Below, in pieces: positions 16,089-27,772 of a stretch of 41,471 nt of DNA; positions within the stretch are counted from its first letter, which is position 1, and every line of letters begins with the position of its first letter. The stretch is from a virus. The DNA is taken from the IMG/VR virus record IMGVR_UViG_3300005288_000096, positions 1 through 41,471 of that record, one strand, 5' to 3'. The notes under the pieces were generated by a model that saw only the letters and a program-made list of their open reading frames with translations, had not been told where the DNA came from and did not search any database. Position numbers and translations under genes: made by a program.

Positions 16089-17165
16089 ATGCTCTCTTGG
16101 GTGTCTGTAAACGCGAACACTGGTGACATCACCGCCGACCTTCCGACGCTCAGGGCGGATGGGGCGTTGAAGCAGACGCTAATGCGGTACGAATCGCAGA
16201 CCGCGTCACTGCCGATGGACAAGGCGCCGGACAACTGGCGTCAGGCCACACGGAAGGGCGCTACGTTCCTGGTTGCCTTAGATGAGGACAACACGCCGTT
16301 GTGGGGCGGGATGGTGATCCGCCGCTCACGCAAGGTGGGTGACGGCGTGAAAATGTCACTCGTGACCGCCGAAGCGTACTTCGACCGTGTCTATGTTGGT
16401 GACGAGACGCTCACCGGGGCGCAAAACCTTATCGTCAAGACCCTGGTTGAGGATTATGCCGCGACAGGCGTGAAGCGTGGCCTGCCGATCCGGGTACAGG
16501 TTGTTGGCGGGGACGGTGTTGTCCGGACCCGCACGCATAAAGACTCGGACGACAAAACGCTCTATTCGGTTCTGTCCGACATTTCCGGCGTGCTGGGCGG
16601 GTCCGAGTGGACTGTCGGCTGGGAATGGGTTGGCACGAAGCTCGGGCTTGTCCTGTTCGTGGCGGATCGTATCGGATCACCCGCGCCGGCTGGCCTGAAT
16701 CCTGCCGCACAGTTCTACCTGCCGGGATCGGTGACTGACGCTGAACTCGTTGAGGGCTACGGATCCAGCGAGGGCTCCAACGATGTCATGGCGACCAGCT
16801 CTGGTGTTGAGGGTGCACGCCCTCAGTCCCCGCATCAAACGAACGCGGCAGATTTACGCCCACGGTTTGAATATAGGTGGACCCCGTCAACATCCATCAC
16901 GGATGTGAACACTCTCACCGGTCACGCGCAACGGGCACTCGCGGCGATGAAGGACGGTTCTGTGGCGCTCAGCATCACAGCGAACCGGGCCGAAGCGCCC
17001 AAGCTAAACAAGGACTGGCGGCTGGGCGATGACATCGGGTTCGACATCGAGGCACCGGAATTCCCTGACGGACTGGTGGGGACTGCCCGCTGTGTTGGGT
17101 GGGAGCTTACTGACACAACCATCACGCCCCTCGTGGACGTAACCGGGATACAGGGGATTGAATAA
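16089..17165 (+). CDS. Minor tail / baseplate hub protein
   Basis: The 358-aa product resembles actinophage tail proteins that follow Dit and act as the baseplate hub or fibre base. Typical stretches are RYESQTASLPMDKAPDNW, ATFLVALDEDNTPLWGGMVIRRS and, near the C-terminus, LNKDWRLGDDIGFDIEAPEFP. No catalytic motif is evident. AAGGGGG lies 6 nt before the ATG. Its stop overlaps the next ATG. It is separated from the other baseplate genes by the lysis cassette. Confidence 0.8.
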   Translation: MLSWVSVNANTGDITADLPTLRADGALKQTLMRYESQTASLPMDKAPDNWRQATRKGATFLVALDEDNTPLWGGMVIRRSRKVGDGVKMSLVTAEAYFDRVYVGDETLTGAQNLIVKTLVEDYAATGVKRGLPIRVQVVGGDGVVRTRTHKDSDDKTLYSVLSDISGVLGGSEWTVGWEWVGTKLGLVLFVADRIGSPAPAGLNPAAQFYLPGSVTDAELVEGYGSSEGSNDVMATSSGVEGARPQSPHQTNAADLRPRFEYRWTPSTSITDVNTLTGHAQRALAAMKDGSVALSITANRAEAPKLNKDWRLGDDIGFDIEAPEFPDGLVGTARCVGWELTDTTITPLVDVTGIQGIE

Positions 17166-17821
17166 TGGGTCAGCCAGGACAAGCAGGCAGCCAGTTCCCG
17201 TCTGAGGATGCGCTCGTGCGGCGGGTGCAAGACCTTGAACGCACCGTGCAGCAACTCGCGGCGGCTAACCAGCTCGCGACCGCTGGTATTCAGGCAGTTC
17301 CTGACGGGATCATCGTCAACGGGTCCGAGACAGTCAACGGGCCGCTAACCATCAACGGCGTGGCAACGATAACCGGTGCGCTAAATCTGCCTGCCGGGAT
17401 TATTGGGAATGATGCGCTCGCCGCTCCGGTGTCACCCCTAGCCACACATGTCGGAACGAACAACTTCGGACTTGCCACCGGGCCTAACGTGCCAATCCTA
17501 ACCACATCCATAAATGTCCCGGCAGGGTACACGCAGGCGCTCGTTTTTGCCTCATCCAACATGCATGTCTGGAACAACAACGGAACTCAGGACGATGCCT
17601 ACGCGGTGGTGTTCATCAACGGGTCGTCAGTTGGAGCCTCAAGCCAAACCACGGCCGCAGCCACCGCCAGCGTATGCCTGAACGCGACGGGAACTCTGCT
17701 TATTACCGGCCTCGGGACATCATTCGATGTAGTCGTCAAGGGATCTTCCGCAAGTAACGCTTGGGCGGTAAACACGAACAACTTCATCAACCTCGACGTG
17801 ATGACTATTTTCCTGCGGTAG
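17165..17821 (+). CDS. Minor tail protein with N-terminal coiled coil
   Basis: The 218-aa product begins MGQPGQAGSQFPSEDALVRR, followed by a short coiled coil (VQDLERTVQQLAAAN). It then has beta repeats (DGIIVNGSETVNGPLTING) like the shaft of a trimeric fibre, and a C-terminal beta domain. It probably forms a fibre or tip structure. Its last 17 bp overlap the 3' end of the minus-strand gene that follows. Confidence 0.78.
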   Translation: MGQPGQAGSQFPSEDALVRRVQDLERTVQQLAAANQLATAGIQAVPDGIIVNGSETVNGPLTINGVATITGALNLPAGIIGNDALAAPVSPLATHVGTNNFGLATGPNVPILTTSINVPAGYTQALVFASSNMHVWNNNGTQDDAYAVVFINGSSVGASSQTTAAATASVCLNATGTLLITGLGTSFDVVVKGSSASNAWAVNTNNFINLDVMTIFLR

Positions 17822-18266
17822 GTTCCTTTGGCGTCAGGCCTACGTCCTGGAGCGAAGGATTGACGATATTCGTCGTGCCTGGCGCCGGCGTGCTCGACGT
17901 GTCCCACTTGACCGGGGGCGGACCTCCGGGGACCTGAACGGTTGTCATGCCATTAGGCAGCGTAGCGGCGGTCGCTGGTGCCACGTAGACCGGCTCGGGG
18001 GCGACTACAACGGGCGCAGGCTCCACGACTACAGGAGCGGGAGCCACGGTCGCTACGGGCTCGGCTACCGGCGCGGCGCTGGGTTCGGGTGCTGCTGTGG
18101 TCACGACTGTCTCCGGTGTTGGTGTGGCGGTGGCGGTCACTGCGGTGACGGGTGCGGGTGCGGGTGCGGGCTGGTTCTCAGCGTTAGCGATGGCGAACCC
18201 ACCAAATGCGATGCCCAATGTGGCGAGCGTTCCGACTGCCCCCAGTACTGCGGATCTTTTCTCCAT
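17805..18266 (-). CDS. Secreted or anchored Pro/Ala/Val-rich protein (moron)
   Basis: The 153-aa product is encoded against all its neighbours. Residues 1-28 form a signal peptide or anchor: basic MEKR, a hydrophobic core (VLGAVGTLATLGIAFGGFAI), and ANA before ENQP as a possible cleavage site. Residues 33-105 are low-complexity Pro/Ala/Val/Thr, wall-spanning in character. A polar C-terminal part follows, including VPGGPPPVKWDTS. No catalytic domain. No ribosome site is seen, and a GATAAA element lies 8 nt before the ATG, so the message may be leaderless. A lone reversed gene inside the tail operon is typical of genes expressed from the prophage. Function unknown; surface modification or exclusion is possible. 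Confidence 0.75.
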   Translation of the reverse strand: MEKRSAVLGAVGTLATLGIAFGGFAIANAENQPAPAPAPVTAVTATATPTPETVVTTAAPEPSAAPVAEPVATVAPAPVVVEPAPVVVAPEPVYVAPATAATLPNGMTTVQVPGGPPPVKWDTSSTPAPGTTNIVNPSLQDVGLTPKEPTAGK

Positions 18267-18849: not shown

Positions 18850-19218
18850 ATGGCTGGTCAGAACGTCATCGTCGCTGCATCAATTTCCCCCCAGGTACTC
18901 GTCTCGCAGCAGCTTGGCATCACAGATGTCGCTATCTACACGGTGCCCGCGTCCACGTCCGTGAAGGTGGCTCAGGCGTCCCTCTGCAACACCACGGCCA
19001 GCCCGGTGACGGTCTACCTGTCCCTGGTCCAGACGGGAGGAACGGTGGGCGACGGAACGCACCGCGTCATCAGCGGCTACACCCTCGCCGCGAACGACAC
19101 CCTGGCACTGAAGGACTACATCGGCGGCGCAATGCTCGGACCAGGCGACAAGATCGCCGGATATGCCGGAACCGCTACCGCCGTGGACCTGGTTGTGACA
19201 GGCACGGTGCACGCATGA
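18850..19218 (+). CDS. Beta-sandwich tail protein
   Basis: The 122-aa product has alternating strands, including TDVAIYTVPASTSVKVAQASLCNTT (split here by turns), TVYLSLVQTGG and ALKDYIGGAMLGPGDKIAGYAG. This pattern is common in small phage tail and collar beta-sandwich proteins. The ATG follows the preceding stop by 3 nt, with GGAGG upstream. Its stop overlaps the ATG of the SGNH tail protein (ATGA), so it is probably co-translated with it. Confidence 0.75.
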   Translation: MAGQNVIVAASISPQVLVSQQLGITDVAIYTVPASTSVKVAQASLCNTTASPVTVYLSLVQTGGTVGDGTHRVISGYTLAANDTLALKDYIGGAMLGPGDKIAGYAGTATAVDLVVTGTVHA

Positions 19219-21053
19219 GCCGATCACTAAGCCAGCGGCCGACCTTGGCAACGTCCGCAGACTCTGCGTTCCTGCCCGCCCGCGCCGCAAACCCGCTCAT
19301 GGCCAAGCTTCAGCGCGGCAAAGAGTCCTGCATCCTTCAGGTACTCGGAGACTCCACGGGTGACGGGCTGAACCGCTGGCCCTACCTGCTGTCCCAGAAG
19401 CTCGCCGCGAAATACCCGGCCTACAACGTGGACTACCTCTACTGGAATGGCACCGCCTATGACGCTGTCGGGGCAGGCTCGTCCTCCCGCGTCCAGCCCG
19501 GCGCCACACCGTCTCCGGCCACGGTAGTGGACAACATGGTCCGGGCCGACAGCTCAACCACTCCCGGAAAGACCTCGGACGCCAACGCGTTCGACTGGTT
19601 CAATGTCGCTGGCACGCACGGGATCCAGTCCAACAAGATTTACCCGGTGACGGATAACGCCGTGGTTTCGATGAATGGGCAGTACGCCGACCACACCGGC
19701 ACGATTACTCTTAACGCGTCCTCGAACAGCACCCAGCGGCTGTATCTGCGCTACCAGAACGCCACGAACAACATCCATGCCCAGATCACCGTGAGCGGCT
19801 CCAGCGGCGCGAACATCATCATCTACCACGTGGTCAACGGCGCGAACCTCGGCGGCACCAACGGGACCGTGAACCTCGCGTTCAACACCGACTACCCGAT
19901 CACATGGTCATGCATCGGGAATCAGATCAGCGTCACCGTCAACGGCGTCACAGTCAACAAGACTCTGCCCGCCGTGGACCTCGCCGCGAACGCCTGGCTG
20001 AGCGCGTCATCCACCATCGCCATGCTCTCCCGCACCGGGGCCGGCGTGAAGTGGAGCAACCTCGCAATCACCAACGTGGCCCCCACGCTGACCGTCCGCA
20101 GCGGCAGCACCTCCGGGCAGATCTGCTCCTACTCGCAGACCAACTTCACCGCCCAGGTGCCGACCAGCCCGGATTACACGATCATCAACTATGGTCACAA
20201 CGAAGGGTTCCAGGACGCCCGGCCGCAGTACCTTCGGCTTGTGGACCAGCTCTTGTCCACGTTCCCGAAGACACCGGTTGCGGCGACTCTGCAGAACCCT
20301 CGGGCGAAGACGGATGTGAACTACTCCAACGGGCTCGCCCGCATGAACTCCATCAGCACCCTCGCTACCAATGAGGGCTGGGGAATCATTGACGTGTGCT
20401 CGCTGTACCTGGCCGATCCGAACTACGCCACGACGCTGCTGAACTCGGACGGGCTGCACCCGTCCAACGCTGGCGGCTCCCCCCTGTGGGCCAGCGAGGT
20501 CATGCGGTTCCTCGACCCGGCAGCCATCACACCCGCCCGGACAATCGGCAGCAAGTCGGGAACGGTCTTCGTGCCGTCCACCTACCTTGTCAGCGCCGAA
20601 GGAACACCCGCCCTCGCAACGACCAACGGCTGGCCGGCATGGACGATGGCCCACGGGGCAGGGAACCAGACCGTTCACGGCTTCGCAGACGTTCCCGGCT
20701 CGTGGGACCTCATTGACATCTACCTGCTCTGGTCAACGTCAGTCGCAACCGGACTTACCGGGTCAAACAACCAGGCGTACCTTGAAGGGCTGATGGGCTG
20801 GATGAACGGCCGGCCCGGATACCCAGTGGGGACGGCGAACGCGGGAACGGCACCGGCCAGCTTCGGCCTCGCGGTGGGCGCCGTGGCGAACAACAGCATC
20901 CCGTACACGCAGCAGGCAACACTTGTCGCCAACGGGGTCCGTCCGCTCGGGCGCCCGCTGCTGATACAGGCGAGGCGCGTCGGCGGTCACGCCTTCGACA
21001 CGCTCACCCAGGACATCTACCTCGAGGGCATCCTGATCAAACGGGCAGGCTAG
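19215..21053 (+). CDS. Tail tip protein with SGNH/GDSL hydrolase domain
   Basis: The 612-aa product is the last late gene and probably the receptor-processing tail protein. The SGNH motifs are split. Block I is VLGDSTGDG with nucleophile S47, block III is INYGHNEG with N329, and block V is SDGLHPSNAGG with D412 and H415. Between residues about 105 and 305 sits an inserted beta domain with a jelly-roll or LamG-like pattern (QRLYLRYQN, ISVTVNGVTVNKTLP, KWSNLAITNV). Residues 440-612 form another beta domain, likely for binding. SGNH enzymes often remove acetyl groups from surface sugars. The core is clearly related to the minus-strand gene that meets it tail to tail. Confidence 0.88.
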   Translation: MSRSLSQRPTLATSADSAFLPARAANPLMAKLQRGKESCILQVLGDSTGDGLNRWPYLLSQKLAAKYPAYNVDYLYWNGTAYDAVGAGSSSRVQPGATPSPATVVDNMVRADSSTTPGKTSDANAFDWFNVAGTHGIQSNKIYPVTDNAVVSMNGQYADHTGTITLNASSNSTQRLYLRYQNATNNIHAQITVSGSSGANIIIYHVVNGANLGGTNGTVNLAFNTDYPITWSCIGNQISVTVNGVTVNKTLPAVDLAANAWLSASSTIAMLSRTGAGVKWSNLAITNVAPTLTVRSGSTSGQICSYSQTNFTAQVPTSPDYTIINYGHNEGFQDARPQYLRLVDQLLSTFPKTPVAATLQNPRAKTDVNYSNGLARMNSISTLATNEGWGIIDVCSLYLADPNYATTLLNSDGLHPSNAGGSPLWASEVMRFLDPAAITPARTIGSKSGTVFVPSTYLVSAEGTPALATTNGWPAWTMAHGAGNQTVHGFADVPGSWDLIDIYLLWSTSVATGLTGSNNQAYLEGLMGWMNGRPGYPVGTANAGTAPASFGLAVGAVANNSIPYTQQATLVANGVRPLGRPLLIQARRVGGHAFDTLTQDIYLEGILIKRAG

Positions 21054-21901
21054 ACGCCCAATGCGCGCTTGACTGCTTCCGCCCAGACAACCTCGCCTGC
21101 GGGGTTTGGGTGGAAGCTGTCATCGCGCAGCAAGGAGGCCGTGTTCGGCGTGGCGTCCTTGAACGCTTTCCAGGCGTCGATCAGGGCCACGGGCGCACCG
21201 GTCCACTGATCACGGAGTGACTGGACAACGGCAGCATGCTTGTCGGCGACCTTGTCCGTTCGCGGATTCTGGAGCGTCACAGCCACAGCCGGCGACTTCT
21301 CCCATGCGTTGGTGACCCAGTCCACGAGTTTGTAGGAACCAACCCGCGCTTCCTGCGCGGTGCCAAGGTTGTGCCCGTGGTTCACGATCACAAGGTCAGG
21401 CTGCTCCGGGATCATCACGGCACGGTGCTGGTAGGAGTACTCCATGTTCTTGCCAGATGCCGACCCGTTCCAGATGACGATCGGCTTGCCGGCGCCCTCG
21501 CCAACCACAGTCGCGTCGGCGTAAGTGTTGTTGTCGATGTTCCAGTTGTGGATCGTCACTGGCCGGTGATACTTCACGGACATCGCCTCGGCCGTGAGGT
21601 AGACCCATTCATCGGTGCCGTTGCCGGTTGAGTCGCCCAGCACGCCGAGAGTCCACACGCGCTGCGGATCCTTGAGGAGTTCCATTGTCGGTGCCAGCGC
21701 GGCAGGCGTCTTAGCAGCTGCCGCAGTCGGAGGGGCCGAGTAGTACGACGCCACCTGACTCGACACGGGTGGCGCGGCTTGGGGAGCCATCGCAACGTGA
21801 GTGACAGCTCCCGCAGTAGCGACAGCCAAAAGGGCCAAGCCAACGAGGCCAAGTGTCTTGAGACGCTTCTTACGGCGTCGACGGCTGGACGTACTGCCCA
21901 C
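21050..21901 (-). CDS. Membrane-anchored SGNH hydrolase (moron)
   Basis: The product is 283 aa from GTG 21901, which has GGGGGAA about 6 nt upstream. Longer starts at ATG 21940 or TTG 21955 exist. A very basic run (SSRRRRKKRLK) precedes one membrane helix (TLGLVGLALLAVATAGAV), then an Ala/Pro linker and the SGNH domain outside the cell. Motifs are VLGDSTGNG (S91), VNHGHNLG (N178) and DDSFHPNPAG (D261, H264). GDSTG, GHN, TLQNPR, LVD and the D-x-x-HP ending are shared with the tail SGNH protein, so the two are homologous. This copy lacks the inserted beta domain. The two stop codons overlap in CTAG (21050-21053). Expression from the prophage and modification of the receptor are inference. Confidence 0.85.
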   Translation of the reverse strand: MGSTSSRRRRKKRLKTLGLVGLALLAVATAGAVTHVAMAPQAAPPVSSQVASYYSAPPTAAAAKTPAALAPTMELLKDPQRVWTLGVLGDSTGNGTDEWVYLTAEAMSVKYHRPVTIHNWNIDNNTYADATVVGEGAGKPIVIWNGSASGKNMEYSYQHRAVMIPEQPDLVIVNHGHNLGTAQEARVGSYKLVDWVTNAWEKSPAVAVTLQNPRTDKVADKHAAVVQSLRDQWTGAPVALIDAWKAFKDATPNTASLLRDDSFHPNPAGEVVWAEAVKRALGV

Positions 21902-22027
21902 AGAGGTTCCCCCAAAAAATTCAGATGTGATTGGCAACATTCTACGGCCCGTCAAGTCATGCCACGGAACGGCCCGAAAGACCGGTTTTCTTCCCTAACT
22001 GAAGTTGCACTACTCTCACACGAATTC

Positions 22028-27073: not shown

Positions 27074-27772
27074 CTAGTCCAACTCCTCCTGGCCCGCATT
27101 ATCATTCCGATCCGCAGCCAAGCCGAACAGGTTGCGGACGTTATCTGACCCGTGGCGCGGATCCTCTATCTGCTCCTGACCCGCAGTCGGACGATACTTA
27201 GCAACCTGCTTCTGCAAATCCTCCAAATGCGCCTCCTGCACATAGAACCTCTTCGACAACTCAGCCAACAACTCACTAGTAGGGAAATCCTCAGGACGAG
27301 ACGCACGCTCCTTCTCACCCACCGAAGCCCAGTCACGCACCTCAGCCAACGTGAAACGAGCCGTGATAGGCGCCTCCAAAATCCGGGTGATACTCCCACG
27401 CTCCCAACTCAACGCCTCCTCCAAATCAGGACGCGAATCCTGCCGCGGAACCGACGAGCCACGCATCCAGTTATAAAACGACCGCTCCATAGACGCCGGC
27501 AAACGACGAGTGAACTGCGTCGGACCAACACCGTCAAGGGTTAGCTGATCATTGATCAGCCGCACAAGCTCCATACGGTTGTCCTTGTCGTCAATCGGGT
27601 CACCCAACTTCAGCACCTCACGGATCGCGCCGAGCCTGCTCCTGGGAATCGACTCACCCCGCTCCCAACTACCTATGGTCCTCATCGACACGCCCAGCGC
27701 CTCCGCTAGATCCGCCTGGGTCATCCTGAAACGCTCTCTCGCGTCCTTGATCTGCTCACCTGAAATAGTCAT
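27074..27772 (-). CDS. Immunity repressor (XRE-type, probable)
   Basis: The 232-aa product starts with an HTH_XRE domain (residues 7-55: RMTQADLAEALGVSMRTIGSWERGE). A second HTH-like part follows at about 75-135 (LTLDGVGPTQFTRRLPAS, then SFYNWMRGSSVPRQD). The C-terminal half is helical with a probable coiled coil. It is transcribed away from the Cro-like gene across a 301-bp divergent region, the classical layout for a lysis-lysogeny switch. GAAGG lies 7-8 nt before the ATG. The ImmA-like protease nearby may inactivate it. No Ala-Gly self-cleavage site is seen, which fits external cleavage. Confidence 0.85.
   Translation of the reverse strand: MTISGEQIKDARERFRMTQADLAEALGVSMRTIGSWERGESIPRSRLGAIREVLKLGDPIDDKDNRMELVRLINDQLTLDGVGPTQFTRRLPASMERSFYNWMRGSSVPRQDSRPDLEEALSWERGSITRILEAPITARFTLAEVRDWASVGEKERASRPEDFPTSELLAELSKRFYVQEAHLEDLQKQVAKYRPTAGQEQIEDPRHGSDNVRNLFGLAADRNDNAGQEELD

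What the first reader, a model, noticed from the sequence alone, without database searches (positions are those of the whole stretch)
19215..21901. Tail SGNH hydrolase paired with a membrane-anchored homologue on the opposite strand
The tail protein and the reversed gene share VLGDSTG, GHN, TLQNPR, LVD and a D-x-x-HP ending in the same order, so they are homologues. One is on the virion; the other has a basic N-terminus and one membrane helix that would put the enzyme outside the lysogen's membrane. The reversed strand suggests prophage expression. I infer that the lysogen's enzyme changes the same surface sugar that the tail enzyme recognises, for example by removing acetyl groups, and so blocks infection by related phages. 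I know of no described system with this exact pairing, but I could not search for one.
Basis: partly seen in the sequence, partly recalled or inferred. Interest (0 to 1): 0.85.

Follow-up and report, generated by a model that had tools for sequence, protein, structure and literature searches.

The report
Paired tail and lysogen surface esterases
This temperate soil-bacterium phage carries two related sugar-ester-cutting enzymes back to back, one on its tail and one that would sit on the surface of the cell it lives in, and the same pairing recurs as a swappable unit in many other phages, which suggests that the resident virus edits the very receptor its own tail uses and so shuts out similar viruses.

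Summary
The tail SGNH protein (19215-21053 +) and the membrane SGNH protein (21050-21901 -, probable GTG start, 283 aa) are homologues (37% over 145 aa, E 2e-19) whose genes overlap tail-to-tail by 4 bp. They are not a recent duplicate: all 22 tail domains sampled lie on one side of a 100/99 branch, with the membrane domains and host chromosomal proteins on the other. Some of those host relatives lie in polysaccharide loci.

The arrangement is recurrent. About 20 phage or contig types, most from Arthrobacter or Gordonia, carry a convergent tail esterase and membrane or lipoprotein esterase. Pairs are exchanged as a unit between otherwise different phages, with 2.7-2.9 kb blocks of 100% identity covering both enzymes. 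One phage uses alpha/beta hydrolases in both roles. In 41 contigs chosen without reference to SGNH, 10 of 11 with a tail SGNH have an opposite-strand SGNH, acyltransferase or Wzy gene, against 4 of 30 others.

Best reading: a receptor-editing lysogenic-conversion gene mobilised with the receptor-binding enzyme, a Gram-positive variant of Sf6/P22/D3 seroconversion. Substrate, expression and exclusion are untested.

The parts
19215..21053 (+). Tail-operon terminal gene: SGNH esterase / receptor-binding protein, 612 aa
   Evidence: Lipase_GDSL_2 1e-9, PHROG 15641 tail fibre 2e-32; SGNH core pLDDT about 80-90, insert and C-terminus low
19353..19355 (+). tail catalytic Ser47 (GDSTG)
   Evidence: motif and alignment
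20448..20459 (+). tail catalytic block V, D412-G-L-H415
   Evidence: motif and alignment
21050..21901 (-). Membrane-anchored SGNH enzyme, 283 aa from GTG 21901 (longest ORF 301 aa to TTG 21955); stop overlaps the tail gene by 4 bp
21908..21913 (-). ribosome-binding-like GGGGGA, 6 nt before GTG 21901
   Evidence: sequence read
21791..21850 (-). transmembrane helix after the basic stretch RRRRKKRLK
   Evidence: hydrophobicity 1.97 over 19 residues; AF2 helix 29-55
21740..21772 (-). stalk 'PPVSSQVASYY', shared with other Arthrobacter phage surface enzymes that have different catalytic domains
21629..21631 (-). membrane enzyme catalytic Ser (S109 of the 301-aa ORF, S91 of the 283-aa protein)
   Evidence: invariant in alignment A3
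21110..21121 (-). membrane enzyme block V, D279-S-F-H282 (D261/H264)
18850..19218 (+). small tail gene (PHROG 1276) just before the tail SGNH; a gene of similar size and N-terminal sequence precedes the tail SGNH in L007
23078..24295 (-). tyrosine integrase, same strand as the membrane enzyme
   Evidence: PHROG 1, 5e-38
27074..27772 (-). HTH repressor-like protein, same strand
   Evidence: HTH_3 2e-10; PHROG 3/8 repressor families

Best explanation
The two genes form one exchangeable receptor unit. The tail SGNH enzyme binds and de-esterifies an acylated surface glycan during adsorption (inferred). The convergent gene is expressed from the prophage (inferred from strand) and anchors an SGNH esterase on the outer face of the lysogen's membrane (predicted). 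There it edits the acyl groups of the same glycan class, most simply by removing them, so that virions whose tails need that decoration no longer adsorb (inferred). Because a new tail specificity needs a matching lysogen enzyme, both move together. Shown here: homology, fold, anchoring signals, recurrence, joint transfer as precise cassettes, enzyme-class matching, and purifying selection on the membrane gene in the Gordonia version.
For: Homology and fold. The same slot in Shoya, RootBeer, Hum25, Maja and Mbo4, in L007, L008, L024 and L025, in Gordonia Matteo, Budski, DirtyBoi and Eyes, in Richie, Popper, Bauer, BrayBeast, Kukla, TripleJ, Belphegor and Clown, in AbbyDaisy and Seahorse, and in L073, L116, L129 and L136. 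Joint exchange: Matteo/Budski are 100% identical over 2,724 bp, from inside the tail gene to past the partner; Richie/Popper/Bauer share 2,884 bp identical over both genes with diverged flanks; Kukla/TripleJ, Shoya/BrayBeast/Sarge, Hum25/Pitbull and Budski/CheeseTouch share 80-99% identical flanks while tail enzyme and partner both differ. Class matching: Seahorse has alpha/beta hydrolases in both roles (30% over 216 aa, E 2e-19) on the stalk also used by SGNH versions. SGNH-independent sample: 10/11 against 4/30, p 9e-6; stand-alone SGNH partner 6/11 against 2/30, p 0.002. Other enzymes in the slot are classical surface-glycan genes: AT3, AT3-SGNH, Wzy_C, hexapeptide acetyltransferase. Two chromosomal relatives lie beside Wzz and CapD-type genes, one of them also beside Wzy_C and rml genes; others near glycosyltransferases. 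dN 0.02-0.04 against dS 0.21-0.23 in the Gordonia membrane gene. SGNH tail proteins of Klebsiella prophages are active esterases (PMC13123978).
Against: No expression or biochemical data. No consensus promoter upstream. Joint transfer can partly reflect adjacency. Some tail esterases lack such a partner: L083, ArV2, and Barco/CheeseTouch, whose convergent gene is a 100-aa protein without a membrane helix. Mbo4 pairs a membrane SGNH with a pectin-lyase tail. A partner could add rather than remove acyl groups. Hosts of this phage and its glycan are unknown. Phages in the samples are related, and some HMMs included loci of the sample, although one search found most of them before that.
Confidence: 0.55

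Rival explanations
1. The membrane SGNH protein is the outer half of a split O-acyltransferase: it takes acyl groups from a host AT3/MBOAT protein and adds them to the receptor glycan, blocking adsorption as Sf6 Oac or OafB does.
For: In Hum25 the same SGNH clade is fused to an AT3 domain and groups 100/100 with the stand-alone L008 protein; AT3 genes occupy the slot in MrSmee, L113, L137, L084, L117 and L127; Kukla has AT3 plus membrane SGNH side by side. PatB and the SGNH domain of OafA can transfer acetyl without a fused AT3 domain (PMC7448272).
Against: No multi-pass acyltransferase in the window; the protein does not match PF19040, the AT3-fused SGNH family; best structural matches are esterases and thioesterases.
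Confidence: 0.2
2. The membrane enzyme remodels an envelope or extracellular polysaccharide for host fitness and has nothing to do with phage adsorption; its place beside the tail gene is the usual slot for accessory genes.
For: Chromosomal relatives sit in polysaccharide loci and beside pgsA; accessory genes often lie between tail genes and the integrase.
Against: Enzyme-class matching with the tail, including the alpha/beta hydrolase pair, and joint replacement with the tail enzyme domain.
Confidence: 0.12
3. The membrane enzyme acts during the lytic cycle, stripping receptors from the host and debris so that progeny do not re-adsorb.
For: Same predicted chemistry and location; in Belphegor and Clown the pair lies inside the late gene block.
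Against: Opposite strand to the late genes and same strand as the repressor wherever annotated; no stand-alone partner beside the SGNH tail genes of Casserole.
Confidence: 0.06
4. The linkage is physical only: neighbouring genes hitchhike when tail modules recombine.
For: Adjacency with 4-bp overlaps makes co-transfer likely.
Against: Hitchhiking does not explain why partners of tail SGNH proteins are glycan-modifying genes in 10 of 11 unselected loci, nor different catalytic domains on one stalk.
Confidence: 0.07

Closest known systems
Serotype-converting (lysogenic conversion) modules of Sf6 (oac), P22/BTP1 (gtr, OafB), D3 (oac, wzy)
   Same: Prophage surface-glycan enzymes that alter the phage's own receptor and exclude related phages (PMC9558356, PMC11436027). 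In P22 and Sf6 they lie near the tailspike (own knowledge).
   Different: Those add acetyl or glucose or change the polymer linkage; here a stand-alone esterase of the same superfamily as the tail enzyme is predicted, in Gram-positive hosts, as a precise convergent cassette.
Phage epsilon15 conversion of Salmonella E1 to E2
   Same: Conversion involves loss of O-antigen acetylation (PMC9558356).
   Different: Attributed there to inhibitors of the host acetyltransferase, not an esterase.
CUS-3 prophage NeuO with endosialidase tailspike (E. coli K1)
   Same: Prophage capsule O-acetyltransferase (PMC3046976) in a phage whose tailspike attacks that capsule (tailspike: own knowledge).
   Different: Unrelated enzymes; acetyl is added.
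G7C gp63.1 and Klebsiella prophage SGNH receptor-binding proteins
   Same: SGNH domain in a tail fibre; tested members are active esterases, and G7C's removes an O-acetyl group from LPS (PMC13123978).
   Different: No membrane-anchored partner described there.
AT3-SGNH acetyltransferases OatA, OafA, OafB
   Same: Membrane-tethered SGNH domain acting on surface sugars.
   Different: No AT3 domain here and no PF19040 match; Hum25 shows a fusion of this SGNH clade to AT3.

Membership tests
SGNH/GDSL hydrolase superfamily | Block I Ser in GDS, Block III Asn, Block V DxxH, SGNH fold | tested here: met
   S109, N196, D279/H282; Foldseek to TesA, CE3 and Axe2, E down to 5e-8
SGNH/GDSL hydrolase superfamily | ester hydrolysis | not testable with these tools
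   no assay
Lysogenic (serotype) conversion gene | carried by a temperate phage outside the late operon, on the repressor strand | tested here: met
   integrase and repressor-like genes on the same strand; partner on repressor strand in 7 of 7 annotated phages
Lysogenic (serotype) conversion gene | membrane or extracytoplasmic surface-glycan enzyme | tested here: inconclusive
   anchor and fold predicted; glycan link only by relatives and slot-mates
Lysogenic (serotype) conversion gene | expressed in lysogen, alters surface, excludes phages | not testable with these tools
   no expression or plating data; promoter scan negative
AT3-SGNH acyltransferase (OatA/OafB) | AT3 domain fused or encoded alongside | tested here: not met
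   no Acyl_transf_3 match in the protein and no multi-pass protein but the tape measure in the window
AT3-SGNH acyltransferase (OatA/OafB) | SGNH domain of PF19040 type | tested here: not met
   only GDSL families matched; L117 and L127 do match PF19040
PHROG 15641 tail fibre | sequence match | tested here: met
   both proteins match, but the membrane proteins form a separate clade with chromosomal proteins

The most novel reading that the evidence does not exclude
Temperate phages of Actinobacteria carry mobile 'mirror' cassettes: a receptor-attacking tail enzyme plus a lysogen-surface enzyme of the same chemistry, built by swapping catalytic domains (two SGNH types, alpha/beta hydrolase) onto a common membrane or lipoprotein stalk. 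Receptor specificity and receptor-based exclusion are therefore inherited together as one module, with receptor de-esterification as a new kind of superinfection exclusion.
Probability: 0.45. Interest if true: 0.85.

Novelty: new variant of a known kind. Interest (0 to 1): 0.72.

Why it matters
Receptors of most actinobacterial phages are unknown, and receptor-based exclusion is described mainly for Gram-negative O-antigen. If the pairing is functional, the partner gene predicts which chemical group the tail needs, exclusion groups could be read from genomes, and naturally near-identical phages (Shoya, BrayBeast, Sarge) allow direct tests. Open-access full-text searches found no description of such an esterase pair, but subscription papers were not covered.

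Tried and rejected
Recent duplication of one gene into two: rejected by the tree. Chance resemblance: rejected. Family-free BLASTP mirror test on 41 loci was weak (2 of 41 same-locus loci against 22 of 1640 cross-locus pairs), because most pairs belong to different SGNH subfamilies; profile-based counting was used instead. Single-protein scan of IMG/VR found nothing. Megablast to known phages found no close relative of the pair. Membership in AT3-SGNH: not met. Sigma-70 promoter scan: none. Rfam: none. Whole tail protein model is too weak for a fold search. The minus-strand proline/alanine-rich ORF 17805-18266 has no phage relatives.

Full report
OBSERVATION. The window is a 41,471-bp virus record with terminase, portal, major head, tape-measure and minor tail genes on the + strand, and integrase and a repressor-like gene on the - strand, so it is most likely a temperate siphophage. 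The last tail-operon gene (19215-21053 +) and the minus-strand gene overlap by 4 bp tail to tail. They are homologous (37% over 145 aa, E 2e-19) and both match PHROG 15641 tail fibre. The minus gene most likely starts at GTG 21901, 6 nt after GGGGGA, giving 283 aa: RRRRKKRLK, one hydrophobic helix, a PPVS stalk and an SGNH domain. AlphaFold2 models that domain confidently, and its nearest solved relatives are esterases and thioesterases such as TesA, CE3 and Axe2. The tail copy has an insert between catalytic blocks I and II, modelled poorly.

RELATION OF THE TWO. In a tree of 37 domains, all 22 tail domains are on one side of a 100/99 branch; the other side holds nine phage membrane domains and six chromosomal proteins. 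So the pair is not a recent duplicate. Chromosomal relatives are single-helix proteins found in few Actinomycetales genomes (9 of 396). One lies beside Wzy_C, Polysacc_synt_2, Wzz, RmlA-like and RmlC genes (L046), one beside Polysacc_synt_2 and Wzz (L049), others near glycosyltransferases (L043, L047), and the Microbacteriaceae ones beside a gene that looks like pgsA (by sequence only). Several chromosomal copies have lost the catalytic Ser (GDQT, GDGT).

RECURRENCE. tblastn to phage records led to Arthrobacter phages Shoya and RootBeer and Rhodococcus phage Mbo4 with a minus-strand membrane SGNH in the same slot, to Hum25 with an AT3-SGNH fusion, and to Maja with a Wzy_C protein. IMG/VR and GTDB added L007, L008, L024 and L025. 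Further searches added Gordonia Matteo, Budski, DirtyBoi and Eyes, and Arthrobacter Richie, Popper, Bauer, BrayBeast, Kukla, TripleJ, AbbyDaisy and Seahorse, plus Gordonia Belphegor and Clown, where the pair sits elsewhere in the late genes. Membrane partners carry a transmembrane helix or a lipobox (L025, TripleJ, BrayBeast, Seahorse). AbbyDaisy's predicted helix is weak (1.51) and the minus-strand SGNH of L021 has none.

JOINT EXCHANGE. Matteo and Budski, assigned to different genera, are 100% identical over 2,724 bp running from inside the tail gene past the convergent esterase, with unrelated sequence before. Richie, Popper and Bauer share 2,884 bp identical over both enzymes, with diverging flanks. 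Conversely, Kukla/TripleJ, Shoya/BrayBeast, Shoya/Sarge, Hum25/Pitbull and Budski/CheeseTouch share flanks at 80-99% identity while tail enzyme and partner both differ. The tail attachment domain stays when the enzyme part is exchanged (Shoya/BrayBeast 95.6%, Shoya/Sarge 97.1%). Sarge, annotated with a glycoside hydrolase tail, has no partner.

CLASS MATCHING. In Seahorse both proteins are alpha/beta hydrolases related to each other (30% over 216 aa, E 2e-19; Pfam for the lipoprotein). Its lipoprotein uses the same stalk (PPPVSAKVQ.YYDK) as SGNH versions of two different subfamilies. In a sample of 41 contigs chosen by minor tail proteins, an opposite-strand SGNH, AT3 or Wzy gene follows in 10 of 11 loci with a tail SGNH and in 4 of 30 others (p 9e-6). 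A stand-alone SGNH partner follows in 6 of 11 against 2 of 30 (p 0.002). Limits: phages are related, some profiles were enriched with loci from the sample (one search had already found most), and one search did not test other glycan enzymes. Ten phages found by a tail attachment domain show the same: partners contain SGNH in Hum25, Shoya, BrayBeast, AbbyDaisy, Bauer and RootBeer; MrSmee has a SASA-type esterase tail with a co-directional AT3; Pitbull has a hexapeptide acetyltransferase; Zucker a Wzy_C protein; Sarge none.

SELECTION. Between Gordonia cassettes the membrane gene has dN 0.02-0.04 and dS 0.21-0.23, so it is maintained.

MECHANISM. Tail SGNH proteins of Klebsiella prophages are active esterases and G7C's removes an O-acetyl group from LPS (PMC13123978). 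Receptor modification by prophage acetyltransferases and glucosyltransferases is a known exclusion route (Sf6, P22, D3; PMC9558356, PMC11436027), and epsilon15 lysogeny reduces O-antigen acetylation (PMC9558356). The simplest reading is that the lysogen's membrane esterase edits the acyl groups that the tail recognises. The alternative direction, acyl addition with a host donor protein, stays open because of Hum25 and Kukla. Expression, substrate and exclusion are inferred, not shown.

VERDICT. A real, recurrent and mobile pairing. It is filed as a new variant of lysogenic conversion: it works like seroconversion, but the functional membership criteria could not be tested.

Noticed in passing
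window 17805-18266 (-): A second minus-strand ORF (153 aa) inside the tail region, with a signal-like N-terminus and a Pro/Ala/Val-rich chain, convergent with the gene 17165-17821; no relatives among phage records.
   Followed up: partly
L003 7669-9609 and L008 7995-8813: The SGNH domain of Hum25's AT3-SGNH fusion and the stand-alone L008 membrane SGNH are close relatives beside similar tail genes: gain or loss of an AT3 domain in one slot.
   Followed up: partly
L043, L044, L045, L047, L048: Chromosomal single-helix SGNH relatives that have lost the catalytic Ser (GDQT or GDGT), some near glycosyltransferases: possible non-catalytic glycan-binding proteins.
   Followed up: no
L117 14476-18377: Tail protein with a polysaccharide deacetylase domain next to an opposite-strand AT3-SGNH acyltransferase.
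   Followed up: no
L066, L095, L096, L005: Wzy_C (O-antigen ligase/polymerase-like) genes next to the terminal tail gene in actinobacterial phages.
   Followed up: partly
L143 4756-5058 (-) and L144 4756-5058 (-): Gordonia Barco and CheeseTouch share a tail-esterase cassette whose convergent partner is a Cys/His-rich 100-aa protein without a membrane helix.
   Followed up: partly
L054 4091-4612 and 5396-5596: Two further small genes inside the 2,884-bp identical block of Richie, Popper and Bauer travel with the esterase pair.
   Followed up: no
L025: Contig labelled Acidobacteria MAG holds a phage-like tail region with the closest known convergent pair (membrane protein 47% identical); probably a phage contig placed in that bin.
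   Followed up: no
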